Shown piece after piece: positions 928 to 49,939 of a DNA stretch of 64,000 nucleotides. The stretch's first letter is position 1, and every line of letters begins with the position of its first letter. Source of the DNA: Streptomyces sp. SCL15-4 (lineage in GTDB: Bacteria > Actinomycetota > Actinomycetes > Streptomycetales > Streptomycetaceae); contig NZ_JAOBTQ010000001.1 of assembly GCF_033366695.1 (NCBI RefSeq), positions 124,001 through 188,000 on the forward strand, read 5' to 3'. A model generated the notes under the pieces. That model worked only from the letters and a program-made list of their open reading frames with translations, ran no database searches and was not told where the DNA came from. The translations under genes were made by a program, and so were the position numbers.

Positions 928-1062
928 TTCGCGCCCTCACTAGCCCCCACCGCGCGTGATCGGCGACGGGAATCGTCGTTGAAGGCAGCGGTACCGAACG
1001 GCCTTGTCGCCCGGGCCGACCCGTCCCCGCACTCGACGCCGCGAAGCGAGGTACACCCGGTC

Positions 1063-4000: not shown

Positions 4001-7000
4001 CCGAGGCGGCGGCCTCACACCTCAACGCCCATGTGCGCTTCCTCGACGGCCAGTTGCACACCGCGCGGGAACTCACCCGGCTGCTGGACACCGCGGTCCG
4101 CGGCGGCGGCGAGACGGCACCCCTCGTCGAAGCCGTCCAGGCCCTCTCCCGGCACGGCCTGGCCGTCGGGGAGGCGCACACCCGGGCGGGTGAGGTGGTC
4201 ACCGCCCTGCTCACCCCGGCCGCCGGCGCCCCGCCCACCGCGCTGCCGCCGACCGCCGCCGGCCCCGGCGTCCCGGCTGCCGCACCAGGCACCACCGCAC
4301 CGGAGGAGCCCCAGGTCTGCCCCACACCCGGTGAACCCACGGCCTCCGCCGCCCCCATCCCGGCGGGCCGCAAACCCGCCGACGGCGGCTCCGGCGACCG
4401 CTGGGCGGCCGTACGCTCCCCGCGCGACGGCACCGGACCGATGGGCCCGGCCGCCACCGGCGCCCCCTCGGACCTGGACGAACTCAGCCCGGCCGAGGTC
4501 GAGCGGACCTTTTTGGACATCATCGCCGAACACACCGGCTACGACGCACACCAACTCGAACCGGACCTCTACATCCAGGAGGACCTGGGCATCGGCTCGC
4601 TCAAGCAGGTCGAGATCGCCTCCGCCGTCTGGCAGCGGTACCCCGTCATCAGCCGGGAGCAGCTGTTCGAGTTCAGCTCGGCGCGCACGGTCGGCGAGAT
4701 GAGTGACAAGTTCCGGTCGGTCCTGGCCGCCAGGGGAGCCAGCGACCTCACCTGGGGCCTCATGCCGGAAAGCGGCGGTCCGCCCCCGGCCGCGCGCACC
4801 TATGTCACCCTGCGCCCCCTGCCCGCACCCGACACGTGCGACACCCTGTTCCCCGACGCCCCCCGCGCCCTGCTCGTCGACGACGGCAGCGCCCTCGCCA
4901 CGACGCTCGGCAACGCGCTGCACCTCCGCGGATGGCGGGTACACCGCCTGGGCCTGCCCGGCACCACCGCCTCGGGCGGCGGGCGCACCCTGGCCGACTG
5001 GGGCGAGACGGCCCTGACCGCCGGACTGCGTGCCGTCAGCCACCCGGACGGCCCGCCGCACCTGGTACTGCAACCTGTCGGCCGGGACACGGACACCACC
5101 GCGGAAATCGTCATCGCGCGGCTCCAGCACAGCGTCCTGCTCGCCAAACACGTCTGCCCGGCGCTGAACGACACCGTCCGCACCGGCAGCCGGGCCGCGT
5201 TCCTCACCGTCACCCGGCTCGACGGCGCCCTGGGACACCGCGGCTCGGGCGGAGACGCCATCGCCGCCCTCGCCGGGGGCCTGGCGGGGCTGGTCAAGAC
5301 CGTGGCGCTGGAAGCGCCCGCGCTGTTCTGCCGCGCCGTCGACCTCGACCCCGCGCTCACCGACGAGGAGGCGACCGCCTCCTTCCTCGCGGAACTCACC
5401 GACACCGCCACCGACGTACGCGAGAGCGGCCACGACCGGGTCGGACGCCGCACCACGGCACTCTCCGCCGAACCGGACGCGAGCATCCTGCCCCAGGACC
5501 CCGCCACCCCCGGCCTGACCGAAAACGACGTCCTGCTGGTGTCCGGCGGCGCCTCCGGGATCACCGCCTGGTGCGTACGGGCCCTCGCCCGGGCCCACCG
5601 CTGCGGCTTCGTCCTCCTGGGCCGTACGGACCCGCCGCCCCCGGCGGACGCCCCCGACGGCGCCGGCACTCCGGGCGACCGCGGCCCGCGTACGCAACAG
5701 ATCGCGGAACTCCTCACGGAGCTGCGCGCCGACGGAATCAGCGTCGACTACGTCGGCGCCGACCTCCTCGACGCCGATGCCGTCGGCCGGGCCCTGGCCC
5801 CGCACCTGCCCCGCATCACCGGACTCGTCCACGGAGCGGGTGTCCTGGGCGACAAACCGCTGAGTGACAAGACCCCGGAGGCCGTGACCCGTGTCGTGGG
5901 CACCAAAGTCACCGGCCTGCACCACCTCATGGGAGTGCTCGACCAGAACCGGCTACGCCATCTGATGGTCTTCTCCTCGATCGCCGGCTACTGGGGCAAC
6001 GTCCGCCAGTCCGACTACGCGCTGGCCAATGAGTCCCTGGTCCGCTACGCCTGCGCCGTCAAGGCCGCCCGGTCCGCCACCCGGGTCACCACCCTGGTCT
6101 GGGGCCCCTGGGAGGGCGGGATGGCCGCCCCCATGGCCGACCTGTTCCGCGGCCAAGGGCTACCCGTCCTCACCCGCGAGGAGGGATGCGGCCATCTCCT
6201 CGACCTCACCCGGCAGGCTTCCGGCGTGGACACCGTGGCCGTGATCGGCCCCACCACCGCCCCCGTCCGGCGCACCGACCGCCTGCCCGGCACCGTCCGT
6301 GCCACCCGGTCCCTGCGCGGCCTGCACCACGAACCCGTCCTGCGCGACCACAGCTTCGGCGGCTTCCCGCTGCTGCCGCTGACGGCCGCCGTCGGCTGGG
6401 GCCTCAACGTCCTGGAACGCTCCCTGGGCGGGCAGACCCGGGTCCGCGCCTGCCACGACTTCCGCGTGCGCCGAGGCCTCTACTTCGACGGCAGCCAGCC
6501 CGGCCTCGCCACCGCCGTCGCCGTCCGGCGGGAGGACGGCACCGGCGCCCGCCTCACCATCGAAGCAGCCCACGGCTCGCCGTACCCCTGCTATGAGGCC
6601 GATTACCTCTGGGGCCCCGAGCCCCCGGCACCACCGGGCCGCCTCGCAATGCCCAGGGGCCGCCTCGACGGGCCCCTCCACTCCGCCTACGAGGAAGGCT
6701 TCTTCTTCCACGGCCCCGCCCTCACCGGCCTGCGCGACGTGCTGGCCGACACTCCCGAGCGACTCGTCCTCGGCGCCCGCATGCCCGACCCCGTACTGGC
6801 CGCCGGCGCCTTCGCCACCCCGTTGTTCAGTCCGGGACTGAGCGACCTGCTCCTGCAAGCCGCGGCACTGCTGGTGCGCTCCCATCACCACCGGGCCTGC
6901 CCCCCGATCAGTGTCCGCGCGGTCGAACTGTTCGCCCCGCTGCCCGACAACGCTCCCTTCCTCGTCGTCGCCGAACTGGAGAGCACCACCCCCGTGGGCG

Positions 7001-7329
7001 CCCACTGCACCGTGACAGCGTGCACACCCCACGGCGACGTCCTTCAGCGCTGGAGCGGAGTGGCTCTCGTCAACCTCACCCCCGACGAGCTGCTGTCCCG
7101 CCTGGGAGAAACCGCGGCACCACCGGCTCCGGCCGACAGCGGCGCGATGCCCCGGTCCTCACGGACCCTCTCCACGGGCTCTTCGGCATCCGGGCCGGCC
7201 GACGGCCAAGCCCCCGCGACAGGGCCCTCGGCCGCCGACCCGTCCGGGCCTCGGGTTTCGGCGCCCACGGCCCCAACACCTACGGTCCCCGATGGAGCTC
7301 GCACCCCGGAAGGCGCCCGCTGTGTCTGA
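1063..7329 (+). CDS. Iterative type I polyketide / PUFA-like synthase, KS-AT-ACP-KR-DH
   Basis: A 2088-residue synthase. The ATG at 1063 is chosen over an upstream in-frame TTG at 979 because homology to KS proteins starts right after it. Domains in order: ketosynthase (about 10-440; DAACASS with Cys212, EAHGTGTPVGD with His347, MGHTKAAAG with His386), acyltransferase (about 565-870; FAGQGSQYVGMG, GHSFGEV with Ser664), a long Ala/Pro linker, one acyl carrier protein (about 1140-1220; DLGIGSL, phosphopantetheine Ser1179), ketoreductase (about 1480-1740; VSGGASGI, Ser1639, Tyr1652) and a hot-dog dehydratase (about 1750-2010; His1763 in LRDHSFGGFPLLPL). The order matches PfaA-type lipid synthases and enediyne synthases, but there is a single ACP and no C-terminal phosphopantetheinyl transferase. 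It is followed by coupled genes including an enoyl reductase. A polyunsaturated or reduced lipid/polyketide chain is the inferred product. Confidence 0.9.
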   Translation: MTDTDRRMANDPLAVIGLGCMFPGSDDLRGFWRSVVAGRDCIGEVPDAWWDAEENYDPDIFAPDKVYARRGGFLAPQRFDPLASGMPPRSVDSVGLVQLLGLRVAQEALRDAARGRDRWHDPARTGVVLGVCGVNSTLIPLAARLWVPHVREVALRCGLTPGDVDTLTTAFLESLPQWTEDSFPGTLGNIVSGRIANRFDLGAVNHTVDAACASSLAAVRAAADELLARRADVMITGGADADNSLLTFMCFSKTPALSPSGRVRPFDADGDGTLLGEGLGMLVLKRLADAERDGDRIYAVLRGLGSSSDGRAKSIYAPCGQGQLRALHAAYEDAGCPPHSVGLIEAHGTGTPVGDAVEIEALDTLMSSGARPASVALGSVKSQMGHTKAAAGAAGLIKAALALHHKVLPPTIGVTTPTAALTRADTPLYLSTRARPWIRDPGRPARRAGVSAFGFGGINYHAVLEEHLPDGAPRPAPAAHELPVAHLWHAPTPGQLLADLMSGRPASQEPAPAGHARAGFVCPTEDRYGDLLDATVRHLRAVPEQDEWEHPEGIWYRRRALPDTTRVAALFAGQGSQYVGMGAAAALAVPPVRRAFDDANAVCAADDTLADAVFPPPTAERERAAGNRLCRPDHAQLAVGALSLGQWDYLNELGFTPHAVLGHSFGEVTALHTAGVLDRAGFLAVAHARGTALAAIAGKDTDAGAMAAVHACPQRVRDLLDGHPDVRIANANAPDEQVVAGPTPAVEAFLDSCRTAGVGALRLPVAAAFHTPLVARARAPFADACAAVPFAAPTVTVRAGADGARYGENGDADRATLVDQLTAPVDFAARLRELHDDGVTVFVEFGPRRILAGLVRRTLAGQPVRIVSCDAADRTGDSAAALKSAALSLAVFGLPLAGINRYDAPPPPAPDAESTVARTLHGPNFAFQATRQAGLEGLPGRAAAAPSPVAPPAPPALPAAPADPPSPSLTPAPGTHAALAEAAASHLNAHVRFLDGQLHTARELTRLLDTAVRGGGETAPLVEAVQALSRHGLAVGEAHTRAGEVVTALLTPAAGAPPTALPPTAAGPGVPAAAPGTTAPEEPQVCPTPGEPTASAAPIPAGRKPADGGSGDRWAAVRSPRDGTGPMGPAATGAPSDLDELSPAEVERTFLDIIAEHTGYDAHQLEPDLYIQEDLGIGSLKQVEIASAVWQRYPVISREQLFEFSSARTVGEMSDKFRSVLAARGASDLTWGLMPESGGPPPAARTYVTLRPLPAPDTCDTLFPDAPRALLVDDGSALATTLGNALHLRGWRVHRLGLPGTTASGGGRTLADWGETALTAGLRAVSHPDGPPHLVLQPVGRDTDTTAEIVIARLQHSVLLAKHVCPALNDTVRTGSRAAFLTVTRLDGALGHRGSGGDAIAALAGGLAGLVKTVALEAPALFCRAVDLDPALTDEEATASFLAELTDTATDVRESGHDRVGRRTTALSAEPDASILPQDPATPGLTENDVLLVSGGASGITAWCVRALARAHRCGFVLLGRTDPPPPADAPDGAGTPGDRGPRTQQIAELLTELRADGISVDYVGADLLDADAVGRALAPHLPRITGLVHGAGVLGDKPLSDKTPEAVTRVVGTKVTGLHHLMGVLDQNRLRHLMVFSSIAGYWGNVRQSDYALANESLVRYACAVKAARSATRVTTLVWGPWEGGMAAPMADLFRGQGLPVLTREEGCGHLLDLTRQASGVDTVAVIGPTTAPVRRTDRLPGTVRATRSLRGLHHEPVLRDHSFGGFPLLPLTAAVGWGLNVLERSLGGQTRVRACHDFRVRRGLYFDGSQPGLATAVAVRREDGTGARLTIEAAHGSPYPCYEADYLWGPEPPAPPGRLAMPRGRLDGPLHSAYEEGFFFHGPALTGLRDVLADTPERLVLGARMPDPVLAAGAFATPLFSPGLSDLLLQAAALLVRSHHHRACPPISVRAVELFAPLPDNAPFLVVAELESTTPVGAHCTVTACTPHGDVLQRWSGVALVNLTPDELLSRLGETAAPPAPADSGAMPRSSRTLSTGSSASGPADGQAPATGPSAADPSGPRVSAPTAPTPTVPDGARTPEGARCV

Positions 7330-7594
7330 GCTGGATTTCGACGGCACGCCACTGCACACCCTGATCGCCTGCGCTCCCGCACCGGCGACCGCTGTGGGCG
7401 CCCCACCCACTGCGCGCGCAGCGCCATATCACGCCGCCGCACAGCCCCCGACGCCGGCGCCGCACACACACGCCCTCCTGCTCGCCGAGCGGATCCAGCA
7501 GGCGCACGCCGCCGTGCTGGCCGCCCATGACGCCATCGCCCGCCACCAGCTACTGCTGGCGGAAGAATCCGCCGGCACCAGACTCGACCGGTGA
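7322..7594 (+). CDS. Small protein between synthase and enoyl reductase
   Basis: A 90-residue protein starting at GTG 7322, inside the last codons of the synthase gene (overlap 8 bp), with GGAAGG eight bases upstream. Its stop shares GTGA with the start of the following reductase gene, so the three genes are translationally coupled. The N-terminal half is Ala/Pro-rich; the C-terminal half (about residues 50-85) is a likely amphipathic helix containing AERIQQAHAAVLAAHDAIAR. Similar Ala-rich helical segments occur as linkers in PUFA synthase subunits, which suggests a docking or scaffold role, but no catalytic motif is visible and I do not recognise a named family. Confidence 0.7.
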   Translation: MSELDFDGTPLHTLIACAPAPATAVGAPPTARAAPYHAAAQPPTPAPHTHALLLAERIQQAHAAVLAAHDAIARHQLLLAEESAGTRLDR

Positions 7595-9186
7595 CCGCGC
7601 CACAGAGCCCAGCCGAGGTACGGGCCGTCCTGGAGGCCCTGCACCGGCCTTGCTACGTCACCGGCCCCCTGGACGACATCCGGCTGACCCACGAGGGGCC
7701 CACCGCGGCACGACCCCTGCTCGCCTGCGCGCCGCCGCTGCCCGCCGAACGCCTCGGCGCCCCCGGCTTCCGCGCCCACCACGGCGTCACCGCCGCCTAC
7801 CTGGCCGGGGCCATGGCCGTGGGCATCGCGTCCGTCGACCTCGTGTGCGCCCTGTCCCGCGCCGGCTACCTCGCCTCCTTCGGCGCCGCGGGCCTGACCT
7901 CCGACCGGCTCGACGACGCCCTGGCCGCACTGCGGCGGTACCTGGGCGACGGGCCGTACGCCTGCAACCTCATCCACAGCCCCACCGCGCCCCGGCTGGA
8001 GCGGCACTGCGTCGACCTCTGCCTGCGCCACGGCGTGCGCTGCGTGGAGGCATCCGCCTTCGTCCAGCTCACACCGGACCTTCTGCGCTACCGGCTCAGC
8101 GGCCTGCGCCAGGACCGGGAAGGGGCGGTGCTCTCCGCTCACCGCCTGATCGCCAAGGTGTCCCGCCCGGAGACCGCCCGGCTCTTCCTGCGCCCCGCGC
8201 CCGCCGCGATGGTGGCCGAGCTGCTCCGGGCCGGGCACATCGACGCCGAACAGGCCGCTCTGGCGGACCGGGTGCCCGTCGCCGACGACATCACCGTGGA
8301 AGCCGACTCCGGCGGTCATACCGACCGCAGACCGCTCACGGTGATCCTGCCCCTGATCGCGGCGCTGCGGGACGACCTCGCGATGCCGGGCCGCCCGCCG
8401 GTACGGATCGGAGCCGCCGGCGGCCTCGGCACCCCGTACGCGGTCGCCGCGGCCTTCGCGGCGGGCGCGGACTACGTGGTGACCGGCTCGGTCAACCAAG
8501 CCTGCGTGGAAGCAGGCACCTCCGCCGAGGTCAAGCTGCTGCTGGCCGAAGCCGGACCCACCGACGTGGCCATGGCCCCGGCCGCGGACCTGTTCGAGCA
8601 AGGCGGCACGGTCCAGGTCCTCACCCGCGGCACCCGCTTCGCCCAGCACGCCGGGTACCTCCACCGCCTCTACCGCGACCACGACGGCCTCGACGCCCTG
8701 CCCGCCCACCACGTGCGCCGCCTCGAAAGAAGCGTCCTGGGCCGACCGGTCAACGAGGTGTGGGAGGAGACCGCCGCGTATCTGCGCGCCCGGGCCCCGC
8801 AAGAACTCGGCCGCGCGGAGGGGGACACCAAACACCGGATGGCGCTCGTGTTCCGCTGGTACCTGGCCACGGCCTCGCGCCGGGCCGTACGGGGCGAGAC
8901 GGAACACACCGCACACTGGCAGATCTGGTGCGGCCCCGCCATGGGCGCCTTCAACGCCTGGACCGCCGGCACCCCACTGAGCCGCCCGGAGCACCGCCAC
9001 GCCGCCACGGTCGCGACCAGCCTGCTGCACGGCGCGGCCTTCCTCACCCGCGTCCACACCCTGCGCGTGAACGGCGTCACCCTGCCCGCCGAGGCGACCC
9101 GCTGCCGCCCCCTGTACGTGCCGCCCCCGCACACCCGGCTTCCGGCACCAGCCGTTCCTGCCGCCTCGCGATCCCCCCGGACATGA
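7591..9186 (+). CDS. PfaD-type trans-acting enoyl reductase
   Basis: A 531-residue FMN-dependent TIM-barrel protein of the PfaD / nitronate monooxygenase-like family that reduces enoyl intermediates in trans on PUFA and trans-AT synthases. Visible family features are the N-terminal GFRAHHGVTAAYLAGAM, the phosphate-binding stretch IGAAGGLGTPYAVAAAFAAG followed by ADYVVTGSVNQA, and the C-terminal helical part with FRWYLATASRRA. The start overlaps the stop of the small upstream gene (GTGA). Its position immediately after the synthase indicates that it supplies the enoyl reduction step missing from that protein. It is the last gene of the operon; the next 480 bp hold only a transposase relic. Confidence 0.88.
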   Translation: MTAPQSPAEVRAVLEALHRPCYVTGPLDDIRLTHEGPTAARPLLACAPPLPAERLGAPGFRAHHGVTAAYLAGAMAVGIASVDLVCALSRAGYLASFGAAGLTSDRLDDALAALRRYLGDGPYACNLIHSPTAPRLERHCVDLCLRHGVRCVEASAFVQLTPDLLRYRLSGLRQDREGAVLSAHRLIAKVSRPETARLFLRPAPAAMVAELLRAGHIDAEQAALADRVPVADDITVEADSGGHTDRRPLTVILPLIAALRDDLAMPGRPPVRIGAAGGLGTPYAVAAAFAAGADYVVTGSVNQACVEAGTSAEVKLLLAEAGPTDVAMAPAADLFEQGGTVQVLTRGTRFAQHAGYLHRLYRDHDGLDALPAHHVRRLERSVLGRPVNEVWEETAAYLRARAPQELGRAEGDTKHRMALVFRWYLATASRRAVRGETEHTAHWQIWCGPAMGAFNAWTAGTPLSRPEHRHAATVATSLLHGAAFLTRVHTLRVNGVTLPAEATRCRPLYVPPPHTRLPAPAVPAASRSPRT

Positions 9187-41094: not shown

Positions 41095-42552
41095 TCACGG
41101 CGCCGCTGAGGTGCTGGACTTGAGGGACCCGGACGGCAGTCGTTTGCGCCGGTCGTCTTCCGCGGGCGTCCGGGCTCCCCGGCTCTCGGTGAGCCCGGCT
41201 CGGTGGCCTCGCGCGAACAGGCGGTCCGGGTCGTACGTCTCCTCCAGCCGTCGGAGGGTGTTGCCGAGCCTCCGGTCGCCGCCGGCCACGCCCGCGTGGG
41301 AGTCGGACGCGTCGGAGTAGTTGGAGTAAGCCCGCACGCTGTCGTGCCCGGACCGCAGCCGTTCGGTCCAGGTGCGCCCCCAGCGGACGTGTGTGTCGTC
41401 CTCCGCCCGGTCCGGCCACCTCGCCGACAGCAGGACGCCCATCCGTGACTCCCGCAGGGGGTAGGCGGATCCCTCGGCGTGGGCCCGCAGGGTGTCGGTG
41501 TTGAAGTACTCGACGAGTACCGAGCACCTGGCGGTGGGCGCGGCGCGGAGCGCACCGGTCATCAGGTCAGGGTCGAAGGCCAGACGGGTGGAGTGGCTGG
41601 ATTTCCAGTACCCGCGCATGGGCGGCAGGAAGGACGAGTCGAAGTGTGCTTGCCATCGCGGGTATTCCCGCTCCCCGACATCCGACCAGTCACCCCCGAT
41701 CCTCTCTCTGAGCCGGGCGGTCTCCATGGCCGTATCCCGGGCGTCGCCGTGGCAGCACAGGTCGACGGAGAGCTCGGGCACGCCGTCGCGGTGTACGAGG
41801 GCCGGGGCAAGTGTCAGTGAGGTGGGTGTGCGTTCCTCCAGCAGTCCGTGGATTCGGTGGAGCACGTCGGCTGCCCGGTCCAGTGGGAAGCGTACGGAGC
41901 CGGCGGTGATGCGGGGCAGCGGGAGGGTCCGGAAGCGCAGTTCCAGGATGATGCCGAAGGCGCCGGCCCCGCCGCCGCGCAGCGCGTGGAAGAGATCGGG
42001 ATGATGGTCGCGCGACACTTCCAGGATCCGGCCGTCGGCGAGCAGCACGCGAGCTCCGCTCAGGTGATCGCAGGTCAGTCCGTGACCGGCCACCAGCCAT
42101 CCGATCCCGCCGCCCAGGGTGAGGCCGGTGATTCCGGTGTCGCTGACCGTGCCCGAGGGAACGCAGCGGCCGTAGGCGGCGAGCCGTGCGTCGAGGTCTC
42201 CGAGGCGCGCTCCGGGCCGTACCCGGGCCGTCCGGGTGTCCGGGTCGTAGGCAACGTCCCGGAACACCGAGAAGTCGATCACCAGGCCGCCGTCGACGGT
42301 CGAGAACCCGCCGATGTGATGGCCGCCGCCGCGCACCGCGAGGGGGACTCCGAGCGTGGCCGCGCCGGTGAGGGCCTTGCGCAGCACGGTTTCGTCCAGG
42401 GTGCGCAGGATCGCGGCGGGCCGGTGGTCGTGCATCCGGTTGTACACCTGCCGGGCCGCGTCGTACCGCGGTGACGACGGCAGGACCAGGCAGCCGTCCG
42501 GCACGACGGTTTTCAGCTGTTCGACCAGGGCCCGGGCCGCCTCGCCGCTCAC
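41095..42552 (-). CDS. FAD-linked oxidase (berberine-bridge-like)
   Basis: 485 residues from GTG 42552, whose GTGA overlaps the stop of the upstream gene. PCMH-type FAD domain with VRGGGHHIGGFSTVDGG (the first His is the usual covalent 8-alpha anchor), LTLGGGIGWLVAGHGLTCDH and GAGAFGIILELRF, and a C-terminal BBE segment with RAYSNYSDASDSH and RLEETYDPDRLFA. No signal peptide, so it is cytosolic. Such enzymes oxidise alcohols, amines or C-C bonds with O2, often as the last tailoring step. It is the 3'-most gene of the six-gene operon 48833-41095. Confidence 0.9.
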   Translation of the reverse strand: MSGEAARALVEQLKTVVPDGCLVLPSSPRYDAARQVYNRMHDHRPAAILRTLDETVLRKALTGAATLGVPLAVRGGGHHIGGFSTVDGGLVIDFSVFRDVAYDPDTRTARVRPGARLGDLDARLAAYGRCVPSGTVSDTGITGLTLGGGIGWLVAGHGLTCDHLSGARVLLADGRILEVSRDHHPDLFHALRGGGAGAFGIILELRFRTLPLPRITAGSVRFPLDRAADVLHRIHGLLEERTPTSLTLAPALVHRDGVPELSVDLCCHGDARDTAMETARLRERIGGDWSDVGEREYPRWQAHFDSSFLPPMRGYWKSSHSTRLAFDPDLMTGALRAAPTARCSVLVEYFNTDTLRAHAEGSAYPLRESRMGVLLSARWPDRAEDDTHVRWGRTWTERLRSGHDSVRAYSNYSDASDSHAGVAGGDRRLGNTLRRLEETYDPDRLFARGHRAGLTESRGARTPAEDDRRKRLPSGSLKSSTSAAP

Positions 42553-43487
42553 GGCGTCTCCTCGTCGAGGACGGCGAGCAGGTTGTCGACCGCCGCGTTC
42601 TCCATACGGCTCCAGGACGTCGCGGAGGACGCGGCGATGTGGCTGGTGACGAAGAGCGAGGTGCCGTGCAGATGCAGCAGTCCGTGGGGGTCGTCAGCCG
42701 GGTCCGGGACGGGTTCCCGGTAGTAGCCGTCCAGCGCGGCGCCGGTCAGGGCGCCCGTCTCCAGGGCGCGGCGCAGGGCGCCGGGGTCGATCACCCGGGG
42801 ATCGGCAGTGCTGACGAGGTAGCGTGGTGCGGGCCCCATGCCGAGGAGCCGCTCGTCCACCAGACTCGTCGTCTCGTCGTTCAGAGAGCAGCAGACGAAC
42901 ACCGTGGTGCTGCGCGTGAACAGTTCCGTCAGGCCGACGCGGGTCAGTGCGAGCGCCTTCTCCTCCCGCTCCTTACGGGTACGGGAGTGGTAGAGGACCT
43001 GGCAGGAGAACCCGCGGGCCAGCATCCCGGCCAGCGCCCCGCCGGTCGCGCCGAGGCCCAGGATGCCGACCGTCGCCCCGGCGAGTTCGGTGGAGGTCCG
43101 GGACGGCTGCTCGCGGTCGTGCAGGTCGGGAAGGGCCCGGCGCATCATGCCGACGGCCAGTCCGAGGGCGAACTCCGCGACCGCGACGCCGTTCACCCCT
43201 GGTGTGGTGAGGACTCGTACTCCTGTGTCGCGCGCCGCGTCGAGGTCGACGAACGAGCCGGCGCCGGTGCCCGTGAAGGAGATGCAGCCAAGGGAGCGCG
43301 CGGACTCCAGGACGGCTCTCGACAGCCGCTCGTCACCACCGAGGAGGTAGTGGTCGGCGTCCCGGACGCGCCGGCACAGTTCCTGTTCCGTGGGCGGCGC
43401 GTCCACGTGGTCGACGACGATGCCCCGTCGGCGGCAGTACTCGGCCAGTCGTTCGGGTACGGACCGGCCGGACACCACGATCTTCAC
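42549..43487 (-). CDS. D-2-hydroxyacid-dehydrogenase-like protein with altered active site
   Basis: 312 residues from GTG 43487 (GTGA overlap with the aminotransferase stop). Rossmann motif VGILGLGATGGALAGML and the C-terminal REP and SHIAAS segments place it in the D-2-hydroxyacid/phosphoglycerate dehydrogenase family. In place of the usual ARG-x-x-(V/I)D motif it has ADPRVID: Asp229 stands at the catalytic Arg position and the only Arg (231) is two residues later. The Glu in YYREP and His in SHIAA remain. It may therefore have changed activity or act on an unusual oxo acid or imine. Neighbouring enzymes act on amino acids. Confidence 0.85.
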   Translation of the reverse strand: MKIVVSGRSVPERLAEYCRRRGIVVDHVDAPPTEQELCRRVRDADHYLLGGDERLSRAVLESARSLGCISFTGTGAGSFVDLDAARDTGVRVLTTPGVNGVAVAEFALGLAVGMMRRALPDLHDREQPSRTSTELAGATVGILGLGATGGALAGMLARGFSCQVLYHSRTRKEREEKALALTRVGLTELFTRSTTVFVCCSLNDETTSLVDERLLGMGPAPRYLVSTADPRVIDPGALRRALETGALTGAALDGYYREPVPDPADDPHGLLHLHGTSLFVTSHIAASSATSWSRMENAAVDNLLAVLDEETP

Positions 43488-44623
43488 CGGCGTACCGCCT
43501 TGTCGAAGTACTCGGCCATGAGGGCGAGCCCGCGCTCGAACTCGCTGTCCGGTTTCATGAGGCTGACCCGCACGTTGCGAGTGCTGTCCGGGGCGTGCGG
43601 GCTGTCCCAGAAGAACCCGCGTCCGGGCAGCACGCCCACGCCGTGGCCGCGCAGCTCCCGTACGACGGTCCGGTCGTCGAGGCCGGTGCCCGCCGTGGAC
43701 AGCCACTCCACGCTGATGCGGCTCGACCGGGCCGCCCGCTCGACGAGGTCCTCGCCCAGCATTTGCCTCAGTCGGGTGCGTCGCCGTGCGACGAGGGAGT
43801 GGAGGGACCGGTGGAGGCCGGTGACACGTGCCTCCTCGAAGAAGTCTCCGAGGACCCGCAGGGTGAACTTGGAGACGCAGAGGTAGATCTCGTTGTAGAT
43901 CTCCCGCAGCGGGGCGCGGTGGTCGGCCGAGCAGGACAGGAGGCTGGCCTTCATGTCCTGGGTCGGGAAGATCTTGCCGGTGTCCTCGAAGACGATGTAC
44001 GAGGCGCCGAGGTCCTGGAGCACGCGGTAGGCGTCCCAGGTCTGCGGGTAGAACAGCCTGAAACTCGCGTCGATGACGAGCGTGACGCCGTGCTCGACGC
44101 ACGCGCGCACGAGCGCGGTGAAGGCATCCTCGGACAGGTTGGTGCCGGTGGGGTTGTTCGGGTTCACCAGGAACAGGACGTCCGTGCCGGGGAGTCGGCG
44201 GGCGAGTGACTCGCCGTCGGAGATCTCCCGTTCGGAGACGGGAGAAGGGCGCGCGCCGCGCCGGCGCAGGATCAGGGCGAGATTGTCGAAAGTGGGACAG
44301 GTCAGCAGGACGCGCTTGCCGGCGAGGGTCAGATACGCGGCGACGAGGTCGATCGAGTTCGATGCGGTCGGCAGGATCAGGTGCTCCGGGGCCGCCTGGA
44401 GTCCGGCCGACCCGATCAGTTGCGCGTACCGGTCGATGTAGCGGTGCTCCGATTCGGGGATCGACTCCGCCTCGGACTTCCGCCAGGCGTTGCCGAGCCG
44501 GTCGACGATCACCTCCTGGCTGGCGGTGAGCCCCTGGTAGGCGTGGCCGTCGGCGAGGTTCGCCTCGGTGAGGAAACCTATCTGCTCGTAGTCCGTGAGT
44601 GTCTTCACGCGTTGGTCCCCCAT
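43484..44623 (-). CDS. PLP-dependent aminotransferase, class I/II
   Basis: 379 residues from ATG 44623, sharing TGATG with the previous stop. Fold-type I features: ILPTASNSIDLVAAYLTLAG, the NPNNPTG loop, DASF (PLP pyridine-N Asp) and Lys in VFEDTGKIFPTQD (Schiff base), plus the C-terminal NVRVSLMKP carrying the carboxylate-binding Arg. It transaminates an amino acid or oxo acid, or acts as a beta-eliminating lyase. The surroundings suggest it makes or consumes the amino intermediate handled by the SHMT-like enzyme. Confidence 0.9.
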   Translation of the reverse strand: MGDQRVKTLTDYEQIGFLTEANLADGHAYQGLTASQEVIVDRLGNAWRKSEAESIPESEHRYIDRYAQLIGSAGLQAAPEHLILPTASNSIDLVAAYLTLAGKRVLLTCPTFDNLALILRRRGARPSPVSEREISDGESLARRLPGTDVLFLVNPNNPTGTNLSEDAFTALVRACVEHGVTLVIDASFRLFYPQTWDAYRVLQDLGASYIVFEDTGKIFPTQDMKASLLSCSADHRAPLREIYNEIYLCVSKFTLRVLGDFFEEARVTGLHRSLHSLVARRRTRLRQMLGEDLVERAARSSRISVEWLSTAGTGLDDRTVVRELRGHGVGVLPGRGFFWDSPHAPDSTRNVRVSLMKPDSEFERGLALMAEYFDKAVRR

Positions 44624-45927
44624 CAGTTCGCCGCCGGGAAGAGTTCCGTCATGCCGCGCACATCGCCCGGCCTGTCCCGGCCGGTCAGCTCGCGGAACGC
44701 GGCGGCACACGTTTCGCGGTCCCGGCCGGAGAGTGCGTGCACCACCAGTGCGCCCAGCTCCTCCGCATCCGCGACGGTGTAGCCGCAGGAGGAGAGCCAG
44801 GCCGTGCCCAGCCGCAGTCCCCCGGCGTCCCTGAACCGGTCGGAGGGGTCGTGCGGCAGCGACTGGCGGTTGGTGAGGACGCCCAGGTCTTCCAGCAGCG
44901 CCTCCGCGCCGCGCCCGTCGTGCCCGAAGACCTGTCGGGTGTCCAGGAGCAGGTAGTGCTTGTCGGTGCCGCCGCCGACGACGGCCCGTGTGTCGTGCGC
45001 CAGCAGCCGACGGCCGAGCGCCCGGGCCAGCGCGACGCTCCGGTCCGCGTACTCGGCGAAGGCGGCCGTCCGGCTCTCCAGGAGCGCCGTCGCCGCGTCG
45101 GTGAGCCGGCGGATGGGGAAGCTCGACTGGGTTCCGGGATGGACTGCGGCGTCCATGCGGTCGGCCAGCTCGGCACGGCACAGCAGGGCGGCTCCGTGCG
45201 GTCCTCTGAGTGTCTTGTCGAGCGACATCGTCACCACGTCGGCGGCCCGCAGGTCGCACGCGAAGGCGCCGCCCGCGATCAGACCCGCCTCGTGCGACAG
45301 GTCGAGGTGCAGATAGGCGCCGACCTCGTCGCAGAGGGAACGCAGTTCGCCGAGGTCGTAGCTCCACGGGTACGACGACGAACCGCAGATGACCAGCCGC
45401 GGGCGGAACTCCTTCGCGATGCGGCGTGCTTCCTCGTAGTCGATACGTCCGTCCGGTCCGACCCCGTAGAACTCGAACTCGTAGTCGCGGCCGGAGAAGT
45501 TCGCCCGCATACCGTGCGTGAGGTGCCCGCCCGCGCGGAACCGCAGGGCGAGCACGCGGTCCCCGGGCCTCAGCAGGCCCTGGTAGACGGCCTGGTTCGC
45601 CTGGCTGCACGAATGGGACTGGAGGATCGCGTGATCCACGCCGAGGACCTCGCACGCGATCTCCGCTGCGACGCGCTCCAGTTCGTTGTGCAGGGCCGCG
45701 CCGGCGAAGGGCCGCTTGCCGACGATTCCCTCCTGGATCATGTCGCCCGCGTAGGGGAGCGAGCGGGCCCGCCATCCCGGCACGGCGTTGTCACTGGCGA
45801 TCAGGTTGATGACGGAGCGTTCGTACGCCTCTTGTCGGGCGCCGAGCTCGAAGAGTTCGGTCCGGAACCTCGCCCACTTGTCCGGCGCCCCTGCCGTGTG
45901 GAGGGCATTCCTGTCCGTGTCAGTCAC
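44623..45927 (-). CDS. Diverged serine hydroxymethyltransferase-like PLP enzyme
   Basis: 434 residues from GTG 45927, overlapping the upstream gene by 8 bp. Clear SHMT relationship: INLIASDNAVP, EGIVGKRPFAG, SHSCSQANQAVYQGLL, GGHLTHGMRANFSG, LDLSHEAGL, and the PLP-lysine segment MSLDKTLRGPHG (Lys238). Several catalytic residues differ from true SHMT: Asp46 replaces the catalytic Glu, Asp237 replaces the His before the PLP Lys, and SSCGY (379-383) replaces TRRGF, removing the Arg that binds the substrate carboxylate. It is unlikely to be housekeeping glyA; a transaldolase-like or other C-C bond reaction on an unusual substrate is inferred. Confidence 0.85.
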   Translation of the reverse strand: MTDTDRNALHTAGAPDKWARFRTELFELGARQEAYERSVINLIASDNAVPGWRARSLPYAGDMIQEGIVGKRPFAGAALHNELERVAAEIACEVLGVDHAILQSHSCSQANQAVYQGLLRPGDRVLALRFRAGGHLTHGMRANFSGRDYEFEFYGVGPDGRIDYEEARRIAKEFRPRLVICGSSSYPWSYDLGELRSLCDEVGAYLHLDLSHEAGLIAGGAFACDLRAADVVTMSLDKTLRGPHGAALLCRAELADRMDAAVHPGTQSSFPIRRLTDAATALLESRTAAFAEYADRSVALARALGRRLLAHDTRAVVGGGTDKHYLLLDTRQVFGHDGRGAEALLEDLGVLTNRQSLPHDPSDRFRDAGGLRLGTAWLSSCGYTVADAEELGALVVHALSGRDRETCAAAFRELTGRDRPGDVRGMTELFPAAN

Positions 45928-47362
45928 GCGCCCAGGCCCCTTCGACGTAGATGAGGCGTCGTTTCCCGGAGACGAACGTGTCGAAGGTGCCGGCATGGAC
46001 GACGTCGACCCGCATCTTCTCGTGGAGGAACAGCGACGAGAGTTCGCGGACGAACTCGGTGAGGAGCAGGTTGTCCTCGATGTCCTTCCGTGGGTCCGAC
46101 AACCGGAGGCGTACCTCGATGCGGTCCGGTGCCACCTGGACGATCTGGTATTGCAGTACGTTCGACTCCTCGACGACCAGGGTCCGGTCGCACAGGCCGA
46201 GAACGGCGTCGGCCGGCACCGTTCGGCTCCGTCCGTCGCGCAGTTTCTCGTCCTCACGGCCCCGGAACGCGTCGATCATCCGGAAGCGGGAGCCGCACGC
46301 GCAGGTGGCGTCGGGGTTCGCGAGGCGGACGATGTCCCCTTGGTCGTACCGGATGAACGGCATGAACGCGTTGCCGAGCGAGGTGCCGACCATGTGCCCG
46401 AATCCGGTCTCGTCGGCCAGGGCGACCTCCATGTACGCGCTGTCCTCGACGAGGTGGTAGTGGCGCTCCCGGCACTCGTAGGCGATGAGCGAGAACTCCT
46501 CCGACGAGTACTCGTCGAGCACCGGGACCCGGAAGATCCGGGAGTACTTCTCCCGCTCTTCCCGGCTGCTGCGCTCCGAGTTGGTGATGATCGTCTCCAC
46601 GCCGAGCGCGTCGAGTGCGACGTTCTCCTCCGCGAGCCGCTGTAGATAGCTCGGGAAGCAGAGCATGACCTGGGGACGGATCTGGGCCAGGTTCTCCAGG
46701 AGGATGTCGGTGGGACACTCCTGGGCGACGGTGACGTAGGGGTAGGCGCCCAGCAGCGAGGTGAGCCGCTCGGCGGCGAAGTACACCTGATAGCGCCAGT
46801 CGTCCGGCTTCAGGGCGCGGCCGAGGGCGAGTTCGGCGTGGCGCATGTTGAGCAGCACCCGGTAGTCGGTGCTCGCGTTGTCCTGAAGGATCGTCAGGTT
46901 GAGTCCGCTGGACCCGGAGGTGCGGGCCGAGTGGACGGTCCGTGTCCCGGCCGTCTTCCTCGCTTCCTCGCTCACACCCGCCTCGATGAGCATGCGTTTG
47001 TCGATGACGGGCAGCTGCTCGAAGTCGGACCAGGTGACGACGTCCCCCGGTTCGAACCCAACGGCCGCATACAGTTCCCGGTAGAACGGAATCGTCGCGT
47101 AGGCCCCGTCGACGAGGGCGCGCAGCCGGTCGAGCTGCCAGGTCCTGACCTCGGACGGGTTCATGCGGGGACGTTCACGCAGCCGGGAGTTCTCCAGCTC
47201 CCACTTACGTTTGATGCGTAATTGCTGCCTCGGGGTTTCCGGCACCAGCCGGTCACTCCTGCGGATGTATGCGGCGATTCTGTCATTCGTTGTGATGTCA
47301 CTCTCGACATCACGTATTTCGATGCCCACGCCGGCCAGGTCCGAGAATCTCGGGTTCAGCAT
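45920..47362 (-). CDS. PaaK-like adenylate-forming enzyme
   Basis: 480 residues from ATG 47362 (AAGGGA upstream). Resembles phenylacetate-CoA ligase-type adenylating enzymes: ATIPFYRELYAAVGFEPGDV, the P-loop HSARTSGSSGLNLTIL, CFPSYLQRLAEEN, the adenine-binding TNSERSSREEREKY, VLDEYSSEEFSLIAYEC, and IRYDQGDIVRL, with a Cys-x-Cys insert (DATCACGSRFRM) typical of this branch. It would activate a carboxylic acid as acyl-AMP, for CoA or direct transfer to an amine. No carrier protein is encoded nearby, so direct amidation or CoA formation is more likely than carrier loading. Confidence 0.88.
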   Translation of the reverse strand: MLNPRFSDLAGVGIEIRDVESDITTNDRIAAYIRRSDRLVPETPRQQLRIKRKWELENSRLRERPRMNPSEVRTWQLDRLRALVDGAYATIPFYRELYAAVGFEPGDVVTWSDFEQLPVIDKRMLIEAGVSEEARKTAGTRTVHSARTSGSSGLNLTILQDNASTDYRVLLNMRHAELALGRALKPDDWRYQVYFAAERLTSLLGAYPYVTVAQECPTDILLENLAQIRPQVMLCFPSYLQRLAEENVALDALGVETIITNSERSSREEREKYSRIFRVPVLDEYSSEEFSLIAYECRERHYHLVEDSAYMEVALADETGFGHMVGTSLGNAFMPFIRYDQGDIVRLANPDATCACGSRFRMIDAFRGREDEKLRDGRSRTVPADAVLGLCDRTLVVEESNVLQYQIVQVAPDRIEVRLRLSDPRKDIEDNLLLTEFVRELSSLFLHEKMRVDVVHAGTFDTFVSGKRRLIYVEGAWARD

Positions 47363-48833
47363 TTGAATGTCCCTTTTCTCGCGTGCTTTTGGTGATGGCG
47401 ATGTGCCATCCGGTCCGCGCGAAAACAAATACCCCGATTCCGCAACCGCCGATGATGACACCGAGCCACAGGCCGTAGAATCCGAGGGGTGTCAGTTCAC
47501 TGAGGAGGACGCCGGTTCCGAGACCGATGATCCAGTAGCCGACACCCACCACGATCGTGGGAGTTCTGGTGTCCGACAGGCCCACCAGATATCCCATCGA
47601 CATGGTGATGAGCGTGTCGACGACGAAATAGGCGATCACGAGCGGGAGAAGTTCGTGTACCAGGCTCTCCGCCCTTGGGTCGTGCAGTCCGAAGAGCACC
47701 CGGGTGATGAAGCCCGACGAGGCCAGGATGACCACCGACAGGCCGCCGGAGTAGCCGAGCCCGATCGTCAGTAGCGCGGACCGCAGGTCCCGAAGGGCCC
47801 GCCAGTCGCCGTCCTCCCGGGCCCACGCGGCCACGGTAGTCGCCGCGCCGGAGAAGCCGAGAGCGAAGACGACCACCAGGGTCTCCAGCCGCAGACCGAT
47901 GGCGTGGGCGGCGGTCGCGTCGGCTCCGAAGCGGCCCACGAAGAACGCGAGTACGGGGAGGAATCCCTCTCCGAGCAGGACGCGCACGCCGATCCAGGAG
48001 CCCACTCGCAGCAGTTCGCCGAGCAGGGGCAGGCGGGGGGCGAGTGGTGCGTTCCTGAGCCCCAGTTCGCGGAGCCGGCCGGTGAGGAGCAGGGCCGTCA
48101 CGGCGAGGACGATGAAGGCCCGGACGAGTGTGCTCGCGAGCCCGGCTCCGAACACTCCCAGGTCAGGTATCGGCCCGGCGCCGAAGGTCAGTGCGTAGCC
48201 GAGGGCCAGGTTCAGGGGGACGGCCGCCAGCATCACCCAGGTCGCCGGCCTGGGCCGGCCGATGCCGGTCAGCAGGCATCGGGCGTCGACGTAGAGGAGG
48301 AACAGGGGCAGACCGACGGCGGCGCCCTCGTTGTAGTCCTGTGCGATATCCGCTGTCCGCGGGCTCTGTCCGATGAGGGTCAGGATGTTCCCGGTGTTCA
48401 GCAGTACCGCCGTGCCGAGGATCCCGACGAGTACCGCGAGCCACGCGCCCTGAACGAACCAGGCGCGGACGGCGCCTGTGTCGGCCGCGCGATGGCCGGC
48501 CGCCAGTCTGGGGGTGACCGCTGTGACGATTCCCAGACCGAAGAGCATGGTTGCGCTGAAAATACTCAGCGCGAGTGTGACTCCCGCCAACTCGTCCGGT
48601 CCGAGCCTGCTCACCAGCGCGGCGTCGGTGAAGGAGATGGCGAGTTGTGCGACGAAGCCGATGGCGAGGGGAAGACCCAGGGGCAGTATCCTGCGCACCA
48701 TTCCCCGTCCGGAATTCTGGACTGTCGATACCGGCTCCGTCACCGCCGCATCACCGTGGGCTGCTTTTTCAGGCGCGTGCGGGCCGAGATGGTCGAGATG
48801 TTGGATCGACAGGAGCGAGTCAGCATGATGCAT
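47310..48833 (-). CDS. MATE-family efflux transporter
   Basis: 507 residues from ATG 48833 (ribosome binding site weak and very close; a downstream GTG before TEPVSTVQ is possible). Twelve transmembrane segments in two related halves (LPLAIGFVAQLAISFTDAAL; LVSRLGPDELAGVTLALSIF; ARCLLTGIGRPRPATWVMLA) define a multidrug and toxic-compound extrusion protein driven by H+ or Na+. It is the first gene of the operon and overlaps the next by 53 bp, which ties export to biosynthesis. Confidence 0.93.
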   Translation of the reverse strand: MHHADSLLSIQHLDHLGPHAPEKAAHGDAAVTEPVSTVQNSGRGMVRRILPLGLPLAIGFVAQLAISFTDAALVSRLGPDELAGVTLALSIFSATMLFGLGIVTAVTPRLAAGHRAADTGAVRAWFVQGAWLAVLVGILGTAVLLNTGNILTLIGQSPRTADIAQDYNEGAAVGLPLFLLYVDARCLLTGIGRPRPATWVMLAAVPLNLALGYALTFGAGPIPDLGVFGAGLASTLVRAFIVLAVTALLLTGRLRELGLRNAPLAPRLPLLGELLRVGSWIGVRVLLGEGFLPVLAFFVGRFGADATAAHAIGLRLETLVVVFALGFSGAATTVAAWAREDGDWRALRDLRSALLTIGLGYSGGLSVVILASSGFITRVLFGLHDPRAESLVHELLPLVIAYFVVDTLITMSMGYLVGLSDTRTPTIVVGVGYWIIGLGTGVLLSELTPLGFYGLWLGVIIGGCGIGVFVFARTGWHIAITKSTREKGHSNAEPEILGPGRRGHRNT

Positions 48834-48839
48834 CCCCTC

Positions 48840-48859
48840 ATTGAAAATTAAATTTCAAT
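48840..48859. promoter_or_regulatory. AT-rich palindrome upstream of the MATE-led operon
   Basis: ATTGAAA and TTTCAAT are perfect 7-bp arms around ATTAAA, only 6 bp upstream of the first start codon and 85% A/T in DNA that is otherwise about 70% G/C. It probably overlaps the core promoter or 5' leader and is a good operator candidate. Confidence 0.55.
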
Positions 48860-49030
48860 TCCGAGCGTAGATCACGGCGGCTTCCCCGGCCAAGGCCCAG
48901 TGGTGAACTTGGCCGGAAGTCCATGCCCTGCGGTACTGGCTCGACTTCTGCGGCCAGTGACAGTGAGTTACTGTGCTCGCCTCACCGAGTCGAGCACATC
49001 ACCCTTGGCCCTCGGGATTAGCATGTCCGA

Positions 49031-49357
49031 ATGCCATCCGTGAACCTACGCCATTCAGTCAGGACCGACCCGCCGCACGTGTGGCATCAGGAAGTCGTGG
49101 CACCTGGACGTGCCGCGGGCTACGACGGCGTCGTCAACGACTATTTCCTCGTACGCACTGCCAGGTTCGAGCCACGCGGGCCGCTGTCCGACGACGAGCT
49201 GACCGCGGAGAACATCCGCGGTCTCAAGTGGTGGCACCCACGTGAAGTCGCCAGTCATGACGGCCCCCACCTGTTCTCCCCCCGCGGCCTTGGGGCTCCT
49301 GCGACGGCATTGATCACCTGTGGTGTTCCGGCCGGGCCGGTGCTGCTCGGCCTCTGA
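49031..49357 (+). pseudogene. N-terminally truncated Nudix hydrolase
   Basis: The 108-codon frame encodes HVWHQEVVAPGRAAGYDGVV, NDYFLVRTARFEPRG, ENIRGLKWWHPREV and LFSPRGLG, the C-terminal half of streptomycete Nudix proteins. The Nudix box itself (GX5EX7REUXEEXGU) would lie upstream and is absent, so hydrolysis is not expected. Confidence 0.6.
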
Positions 49358-49369
49358 GCAGACATACCG

Positions 49370-49560
49370 CGTCGTGGCGCTGGCAGGACTCGCTTCCGCA
49401 GGAGAGTGAAGCCCGGGCGGCGGCGTGTAAGCATCCATCTTGATGCGGTTGACGTGTCCTTCGACGGCGCCCGAGTTCCAAGGCAGTGTCAACCCGGCGA
49501 CAACGGCGTCCCGGTCGCGGTCCAGCGGCCCTCAGCGCCGCTCGTTTTCGGGCGACTCCG
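49370..49560 (-). pseudogene. ISL3-type transposase relic
   Basis: Minus strand encodes DRDAVVAGLTLPWNSGAVEG and HVNRIKM, then after a frameshift RPGFTLLRKRVLPAP, the C-terminal end of ISL3-family transposases. No catalytic domain remains. Confidence 0.65.
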
Positions 49561-49939
49561 GATGCCTCCCAGCGACGCTGTGTCGTCACTCCGAGTGCCC
49601 GCGTCACAGAGGTTGAGCCAGAACCTGCCCTGTGACAGCAGGTGGAAAAGGGGAACGGACGCAGTGCCGAGGGTGTCGGGCCCTGCCGGTCCGCTCCGCC
49701 GGGACCGGGTTCCGGTCGGCTCCATGGTTCCCGCCGCCGTGTGTTGGCGCCACGCGGAAGGCGGGTCGTGTGCCGCTGGGTGACTGGGCCGGTCAGAGGG
49801 GCAGTTCCTGGCTATAGGCGTCCGCGTCGTACTCCGGCGTGCGCCTGCACTTTCGTGTGACCTTTGGATTGCTGTGAGCTGGGTGTGGCATTAAGCGGGT
49901 GTCAGCACTGCTCTCTTCCTCCGGAAGGACGAACAATCC
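49561..49939. other. Intergenic region
   Basis: No gene supported; the 3' 80 bp likely hold the promoter of the SH3-protein gene. Confidence 0.4.

What the first reader, a model, noticed from the sequence alone, without database searches (positions are those of the whole stretch)
41095..48833. Compact six-gene biosynthesis-and-export operon of unknown product
Six minus-strand genes (MATE, PaaK-like adenylating enzyme, SHMT-like enzyme, aminotransferase, 2-hydroxyacid-dehydrogenase-like protein, FAD oxidase) overlap at every junction (53 bp, 8 bp, TGATG, GTGA, GTGA). Every step needed to build, activate, tailor and export a small amino-acid-derived metabolite is present, yet there is no carrier protein, NRPS or PKS. 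I do not recognise this set as a described pathway.
Basis: partly seen in the sequence, partly recalled or inferred. Interest (0 to 1): 0.78.

Follow-up and report, generated by a model that had tools for sequence, protein, structure and literature searches.

The report
Mobile operon for an arginine-derived metabolite
Six tightly packed genes in a Streptomyces genome look like a small, probably mobile pathway that oxidises the amino acid arginine with part of the toolkit of the antibiotic indolmycin, but with different partner enzymes, so it may make and export a related compound that has not been identified.

Summary
The six-gene operon is real; its labels need correcting. The 'aminotransferase' belongs to the PLP/O2-dependent arginine oxidases (Plu4/Ind4, MppP, RohP) and falls on the indolmycin (Plu4) side of a tree, apart from 29 Streptomyces homologues. 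The 'hydroxyacid dehydrogenase' lacks the catalytic arginine, as do all ten aligned cluster members including the indolmycin one; five of five own-genome paralogues keep it. The PaaK-like protein is nearer the indolmycin cluster's PaaK than either paralogue found in its own genome. The three genes occur together in 8 of 20 near full-length AT loci, from Streptomyces to Pseudomonas and Bartonella. So half the operon is the indolmycin dehydroarginine/ligase core. The rest is not: an SHMT-fold enzyme without folate-type residues, an EncM-like flavoenzyme, a MATE exporter. The block is 94% identical in another Streptomyces with unshared flanks, every gene under purifying selection; in sampled genomes the PaaK was found only in the window's own (1 of 392). 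Relatives carry longer versions with ATP-grasp and epimerase genes. Best reading: an NRPS-free pathway to a 4,5-dehydroarginine-derived guanidino metabolite, perhaps with a ring like indolmycin's. The product, the acid partner and the late steps are inferred, not shown.

The parts
47310..48833 (-). MATE-family exporter, likely product export
   Evidence: PF01554 2.7e-41, TIGR00797 above cut-off; 46-53% identical MATE in the L008, L009 and L010 clusters
45920..47362 (-). PaaK-like adenylate-forming ligase (Ind3-type, inferred); motif segments RTSGSSG from 147, DEYSSEE from 283, D343, K467
   Evidence: No Pfam hit; 142 bits to the indolmycin-cluster PaaK vs 67 and 47 to two own-genome paralogues; tree; AF2 model pLDDT 91.6, nearest PDB folds PaaK-type ligases
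44623..45927 (-). SHMT-fold PLP enzyme without folate-type active-site residues (PLP Lys K238)
   Evidence: PF00464 2.9e-70; D46, P73, F74, D237, Q355 in place of E/Y/Y/H/N
43484..44623 (-). PLP/O2-dependent arginine oxidase family member, Plu4/Ind4 side (PLP Lys K217 by motif)
   Evidence: 7n79 E 1.3e-76, MppP 2e-59, RohP 1.1e-44; tree
42549..43487 (-). Ind5-type imine reductase (inferred) of the 2-hydroxyacid dehydrogenase fold; catalytic Arg replaced (D229), E258 and H283 kept
   Evidence: PF02826 2.2e-29; alignment of 10 cluster members and 5 own paralogues
41095..42552 (-). EncM-like FAD enzyme (H78, V136 and T139 at EncM's numbers)
   Evidence: EncM best PDB hit E 5.6e-50; H78 and T139 kept in 7 of 7 aligned cluster members
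41161..48930 (-). Block shared at 94% DNA identity with L007; flanks within L007's 21 kb not shared
   Evidence: blastn

Best explanation
The operon is a probably mobile NRPS-free pathway that starts from L-arginine. Step 1 (family shown, activity inferred): the AT-like protein uses PLP and O2 to desaturate L-arginine to a 4,5-dehydro-2-imine. Step 2 (signature shown, activity inferred): the dehydrogenase-fold protein, lacking the catalytic arginine like its indolmycin-cluster homologue, reduces that imine to 4,5-dehydro-D-arginine. Step 3 (inferred): the PaaK-like ligase adenylates a second carboxylic acid and condenses it with dehydroarginine, probably on the guanidine as recalled for Ind3, giving either an N-acyl dehydroarginine or an aminooxazolinone/aminoimidazolinone ring. 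Step 4 (inferred): the folate-free SHMT-fold enzyme makes or alters the amino-acid partner by an aldol-type or other C-alpha reaction; the EncM-like flavoenzyme oxidises a late intermediate; MATE exports the cationic product.
For: AT: best PDB relative 7n79 (recalled as Plu4), then MppP and RohP; a 100% SH-aLRT branch puts it with Plu4 and all trio loci, away from 29 Streptomyces homologues (quick method). HADH: Arg absent in 10 of 10 cluster members, present in 5 of 5 own paralogues; 160 bits to the indolmycin-cluster homologue vs 77 to the best own paralogue. PaaK: 142 vs 67 bits; 98/96 support with the indolmycin PaaK against 8 outgroup rows. Trio together in 8 of 20 near full-length AT loci; all 8 loci with HADH have PaaK; 0 of 7 fetched Streptomyces AT regions have PaaK. 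L012 is taken as an indolmycin cluster: luxI, W/Y-type tRNA synthetase, methyltransferases. SHMT and OX signatures.
Against: No enzyme was assayed. By percent identity the AT is slightly nearer two Streptomyces homologues without PaaK (41% and 38%, 236 and 220 bits) than Plu4 (38%, 264 bits). The Plu4 side of the AT tree also holds 11 rows without the full trio, and the window's and Plu4's own groups are separate within it. The indolmycin PaaK is a long branch and fits general PaaK models nearly as well (135 bits). The window has no homologue (E 1e-4) of seven other L012 proteins, including the 308-aa protein next to PaaK, so ring formation may not follow. The Ind3/Ind5/Ind6 chemistry is recalled; the paper was not held. 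Only 16 PaaK hits shared a contig with one of the 119 SHMT-like hits compared, so the SHMT's role is open.
Confidence: 0.6

Rival explanations
1. The AT-like enzyme is a hydroxylase like MppP/RohP and the pathway makes a hydroxylated or cyclic arginine (enduracididine-like) building block that the ligase then acylates.
For: MppP (2e-59) and RohP (1.1e-44) are also strong relatives; NCBIfam's best model is MppP, 160 bits against a cut-off of 450; 41% identity to a Streptomyces homologue against 38% to Plu4; hydroxylases and desaturases are recalled to share a mechanism.
Against: More bits to 7n79 (261) than to MppP (205) or RohP (156); groups with the indolmycin enzyme and away from 29 Streptomyces homologues; HADH lies beside it in 8 of the 10 PaaK-bearing loci.
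Confidence: 0.15
2. The PaaK-like protein is an ordinary aryl/acyl ligase and the product is a plain N-acyl amide of dehydroarginine or of another amino acid, without a guanidine-derived ring.
For: Fold and motifs are those of PaaK ligases, nearest PDB acyl-CoA ligase 4r1m and PaaK1/2; no homologue of the 308-aa L012 protein in the window.
Against: None of the other five proteins of the operon is an acyltransferase, thioesterase or ketosynthase by Pfam; the ligase is nearer the indolmycin PaaK than the own paralogues found.
Confidence: 0.2
3. The window operon is a trimmed remnant of the longer ATP-grasp/epimerase cluster and no longer makes a complete product.
For: L008 and L010 have ATP-grasp, enolase-type and unknown-family genes that the window lacks; no match at E 1e-3 to the latter two in the own genome (neither search had a positive control).
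Against: All six ORFs are intact; dN/dS 0.17-0.39 against L007, which has the same six genes.
Confidence: 0.08

Closest known systems
Indolmycin biosynthetic cluster (Pseudoalteromonas luteoviolacea, L012; Streptomyces griseus ind, not compared here)
   Same: PLP arginine oxidase, Arg-less dehydrogenase-fold protein and PaaK-like ligase in one cluster
   Different: Window lacks homologues (E 1e-4) of L012's two methyltransferases, SDH-like protein, 308-aa protein, 132-aa protein, second aminotransferase and W/Y-type tRNA synthetase; it has SHMT-like, EncM-like and MATE genes instead
MppP / RohP arginine hydroxylases (enduracididine, azomycin)
   Same: Same enzyme family, conserved PLP Lys segment EDTGK
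   Different: Fewer bits than to 7n79; other partner genes. MppP and RohP themselves were not in the tree
Serine hydroxymethyltransferase and L-threonine transaldolases
   Same: Fold, PLP Lys, carboxylate-binding Arg
   Different: H228D, N347Q, Y64P and E57D/A in 121 of 121 examined members; LTTAs share 25-35% identity with SHMTs (passage of PMC8072733) but were not compared here, apart from an 85-bit match to the fluorothreonine transaldolase model
EncM (enterocin) flavin-N5-oxide enzyme
   Same: H78, V136, T139 (residues from passages of PMC7662398)
   Different: T at position 135, where the passage names V135; N5-oxide untested

Membership tests
Indolmycin-type dehydroarginine/oxazolinone pathway | Arginine-oxidase relative + Ind5-type reductase + PaaK-like ligase encoded together | tested here: met
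Indolmycin-type dehydroarginine/oxazolinone pathway | Remaining cluster proteins (methyltransferases, second aminotransferase, 308-aa protein, tRNA synthetase) | tested here: not met
   No hit at E 1e-4 in the 64-kb window for seven L012 proteins; the rest of the genome was not searched for them
Indolmycin-type dehydroarginine/oxazolinone pathway | Oxazolinone product | not testable with these tools
   Needs enzymes or metabolomics
PLP-dependent arginine oxidases (Plu4/Ind4/MppP/RohP) | Whole-length sequence kinship and PLP lysine in EDTGK | tested here: met
   K217
PLP-dependent arginine oxidases (Plu4/Ind4/MppP/RohP) | O2-dependent oxidation of L-Arg | not testable with these tools
   Needs an enzyme assay
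D-2-hydroxyacid dehydrogenase (catalytically canonical) | Catalytic Arg in the ARG/SRG segment (role recalled) | tested here: not met
   D229 in the window; Arg absent in 10 of 10 cluster members, present in 5 of 5 own paralogues
Serine hydroxymethyltransferase (folate-dependent) | Residues E57, Y64, Y65, H228, N347 (E. coli numbers, recalled) | tested here: not met
   own SHMT L062 keeps all five, L063 keeps E57 and H228, L064 keeps all but Y64
EncM-type flavin-N5-oxide enzymes | His78 flavin attachment and O2-pocket residues | tested here: inconclusive
   H78 and T139 in 7 of 7, V136 in the window; position 135 is T, not V
EncM-type flavin-N5-oxide enzymes | N5-oxide cofactor formed | not testable with these tools
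   Needs spectroscopy of the protein
PaaK phenylacetate-CoA ligase | NCBIfam TIGR02155 cut-off (646 bits) | tested here: not met
   55 bits

The most novel reading that the evidence does not exclude
A new, widely scattered class of NRPS-free pathway builds a guanidine-derived heterocycle by joining 4,5-dehydroarginine to an amino acid shaped by an unrecognised folate-free SHMT subfamily, and finishes it with a second flavin-N5-oxide enzyme; it travels between actinobacteria and Bartonella plasmids as a compact mobile operon.
Probability: 0.3. Interest if true: 0.78.

Novelty: new variant of a known kind. Interest (0 to 1): 0.56.

Why it matters
It would turn the indolmycin arginine chemistry from a single pathway into a reusable module found with different tailoring genes in distant phyla, give a ready six-gene target for expression, and point to an SHMT subfamily with a changed active site and to a possible second EncM-type enzyme (a review, seen in passages, says EncM is so far the only BBE-like enzyme using a flavin-N5-oxide; PMC11375781). 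The operon has no carrier-protein, NRPS or PKS gene, so cluster finders built on those are likely to miss it (inference).

Tried and rejected
Considered and rejected: ordinary transaminase; ordinary folate-dependent SHMT, although the genome has three other SHMT genes. A link to the PKS/PfaD genes 32-34 kb away was not pursued: only distance speaks against it, since L007 holds just 21 kb. Tried without gain: promoter/terminator scan (0 promoter-like sites, mean 0.2 in shuffles; 1 terminator-like site, on the other strand inside PaaK, mean 3.2 in shuffles); structure of the unknown 468-aa protein of the longer clusters (pLDDT 66.7, one weak match, BshC, E 2.5e-4); plasmid search with the SHMT-like protein (18 records, all under 60% identity, the 12 listed at 35-39%) and with the AT (1 record, the Bartonella plasmid). 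Nine literature searches, seen as listings of their top hits, showed no described cluster with these six genes; the library is open-licence only. MIBiG could not be searched.

Selections: the PaaK tree used 23 of the 57 hits, chosen by hand, plus ten loci and the window. The AT tree used the 49 loci L007-L026 and L069-L097 plus the window; L069-L097 are 29 of the 53 non-own AT matches. Regions around 7 of those 53 were fetched. SHMT residues cover the 120 listed of 507 hits. Contig sharing used 48 of 57 PaaK hits and 119 of the 120 listed SHMT-like hits. Of 54 loci, L027-L060 (34) were left aside as short or weak matches; tblastn of the six proteins found an OX-like match in one of them, L033.

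Mended after checking: the first own-paralogue control for the HADH Arg was a motif search that showed three paralogues and one wrong frame; it was replaced by an alignment of all five.
Full report
Observation. Six minus-strand genes lie at 41095-48833 of the window (G000:C1:124001-188000, genome of 8.42 Mb). Pfam finds MatE, SHMT, Aminotran_1_2, 2-Hacid_dh and FAD_binding_4; the PaaK-like protein finds no Pfam family and reaches 55 bits on TIGR02155 (cut-off 646).

The operon is a unit. Streptomyces sp. NRRL S-31 (L007) has the same six genes in the same order. Window 41161-48930 matches L007 at 94% DNA identity and the match stops at both ends within L007's 21 kb; only one further piece, 108 columns at 49626-49732 at 82%, is shared, and in L007 it abuts the operon. 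dN/dS is 0.27 (MATE), 0.25 (PaaK), 0.17 (SHMT), 0.31 (AT), 0.33 (HADH), 0.39 (OX). In L007 MATE ends 16 bases before PaaK. In sampled genomes the PaaK-like protein was found only in the window's own: 1 of 392 of the genus at E 1e-60 and 1 of 394 of the class at E 1e-30. Rarity, a near-identical block and unshared flanks point to horizontal movement (inference).

AT. Best solved relatives are 7n79 (E 1.3e-76), MppP 5dj1 (2e-59) and RohP 6c3a (1.1e-44); the next aminotransferase is at 1e-5. 7n79 is recalled as Plu4, the arginine desaturase of the P. luteoviolacea indolmycin pathway, and 6c3a as RohP; the PDB table names them only by domain or as uncharacterized. A review (passages, PMC7497351) says MppP and RohP oxidise L-Arg with O2 to hydroxylated keto acids and Ind4 forms a C=C bond. 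AT relatives are not rare in the genus (49 of 392 genomes at E 1e-20). In a tree of 50 rows a branch with 100% SH-aLRT separates 20 rows, which hold the window, the L012 enzyme (Plu4) and every trio locus, from 30 rows, which hold 29 Streptomyces loci and one Acidimicrobiales. Limits: quick method, long branches flagged, 11 of the 20 rows lack the full trio, the window's five-row group (99) and the L012 group of four (89) are separate, and MppP, RohP and S. griseus Ind4 were not in it. Against: identity to two Streptomyces homologues is 41% and 38%, to Plu4 38%, though Plu4 has more bits (264 vs 236 and 220).

HADH. All ten cluster enzymes aligned, the L012 one included, have Asp or Ser where all five own-genome paralogues have the catalytic Arg; the His is kept in 15 of 15; the Glu in 7 of 10 cluster members and 5 of 5 paralogues. 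BLASTP gives 160 bits to the L012 homologue and at most 77 to own paralogues. Ind5's role as the imine reductase that follows Ind4 is recalled.

PaaK. 142 bits to the L012 PaaK, 67 and 47 to the two own paralogues found. In a 34-row tree the window, L012 and 24 others lie apart from eight weak-hit outgroup rows, 98/96, but L012 and several outgroups are long branches, and the L012 PaaK also reaches 133-135 bits on general PaaK models. Adenylation motifs and the C-terminal Lys are kept (K467 invariant in 36 rows). An AlphaFold2 model (pLDDT 91.6) has PaaK-type ligases as nearest folds. That Ind3 is a PaaK-like enzyme condensing indolmycenic acid with dehydroarginine, with Ind6 as gatekeeper, is recalled from Du et al. 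2015; the paper was not held.

L012 is taken as an indolmycin cluster because it has a LuxI-type gene, a W/Y-type tRNA synthetase, two methyltransferases and a second aminotransferase, which fits what PMC5069768 describes for P. luteoviolacea (passages).

Co-occurrence. Of the 20 loci with near full-length AT matches (L007-L026 of the 54), 10 have PaaK and 8 have HADH, all 8 with PaaK; OX is in 5, SHMT-like in 3. 0 of 7 Streptomyces AT regions fetched at 14-19.5 kb have PaaK; one has a weak HADH match. Bartonella kosoyi plasmid pTLV-1 has ATP-grasp, PaaK, enolase-type, AT, HADH, OX, an unknown protein and MATE. By shared longest-contig length, 16 of 48 PaaK hits lie on a contig with an SHMT-like hit (jitter control mean 0.2, maximum 2).

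Longer relatives. L008 and L010 have, besides homologues of the six, an ATP-grasp ligase, an enolase-superfamily enzyme (best NCBIfam models DgcA and L-Ala-D/L-Glu epimerase, both below cut-off, tested on L008) and a 424-468-aa protein without Pfam or NCBIfam family; L010 also has a second ATP-grasp. The window has none of these within 64 kb; its genome has no match at E 1e-3 to the enolase-type or the unknown protein (without a positive control); the ATP-grasp was not searched genome-wide. So the six-gene form is a shorter version, and the pathway probably differs at the joining steps.

SHMT-like. It has D, P, F, D and Q where own SHMT L062 has E57, Y64, Y65, H228 and N347 (E. coli numbers, recalled), and keeps the PLP Lys, D200, H203 and the carboxylate Arg. 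Across the window protein and 120 listed relatives: D at 228, Q at 347 and P at 64 in 121 of 121; at 57 D in 98 and A in 23; at 65 F in 96 and Y in 25. Of the other own SHMTs, L063 has H, H and C at 64, 65 and 347 and L064 has F at 64, so those are not universal in SHMTs; E57 and H228 are kept in all three. Named relatives include Alpha- and Gammaproteobacteria and Bacteroidetes. Loss of folate use is inferred.

OX. EncM is the best solved relative (5.6e-50). H78, V136 and T139 coincide in number and kind with EncM's flavin-attaching His and two of the three O2-pocket residues named in PMC7662398 (passages); position 135 is T where the passage names V. H78 and T139 are kept in 7 of 7 aligned cluster enzymes. 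An N5-oxide is possible, not shown.

Mechanism. Shown: families, signatures, synteny, selection. Inferred: L-Arg to 4,5-dehydro-D-Arg by AT and HADH; adenylation and condensation by PaaK; partner acid by the SHMT-like enzyme; late oxidation by OX; export by MATE. The acid is unknown.

Novelty. Half is the indolmycin core, half is not in L012; no described cluster with these six genes was seen in the listings of nine paper searches of an open-licence library. Hence a new variant of a known kind.

Noticed in passing
window 979-9186: PKS gene (KS, AT, KR and DH-type domains by Pfam) beside a PfaD-family gene (TIGR02814, 581 bits), 32-34 kb from the operon; looks like a PUFA/PKS-type locus.
   Followed up: no
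window 48931-49732: The piece at 49626-49732 abuts the operon in L007 but lies about 700 bases away here, so about 0.7 kb differs between the two lineages just upstream of MATE.
   Followed up: no
L067 (Bartonella kosoyi plasmid pTLV-1) 4354-14393; L009 6097-16142: Eight-gene version of the cluster on a Bartonella plasmid typed as mobilizable and in B. doshiae; no SHMT-like match in either locus.
   Followed up: partly
L013, L014, L016, L018, L020, L022, L024: Arginine-oxidase relative with a divergent LysR-type gene in 7 loci (5 named Obscuribacterales/Obscuribacter) and a methyltransferase directly downstream in 6 of them; Pfam was run on L014 only, the others by BLAST kinship.
   Followed up: no
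L021 10004-17409; L026 9995-17377: Pseudomonas clusters with the arginine-oxidase relative, asparagine-synthase-like, MATE, saccharopine-dehydrogenase-like and PaaK-like genes but no HADH match (Pfam run on L021).
   Followed up: no
L008 13418-14824: Protein of the longer clusters without Pfam or NCBIfam family; its low-confidence model weakly resembles BshC (bacillithiol cysteine ligase), E 2.5e-4.
   Followed up: partly
window 44623-45927 and P0058-P0177: A widespread SHMT-fold subfamily named as SHMT but with Asp before the PLP Lys and without folate-type residues.
   Followed up: partly
P0021: A PaaK-like homologue (56% identity) is named from Rathayibacter toxicus; its neighbourhood was not looked at.
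   Followed up: no
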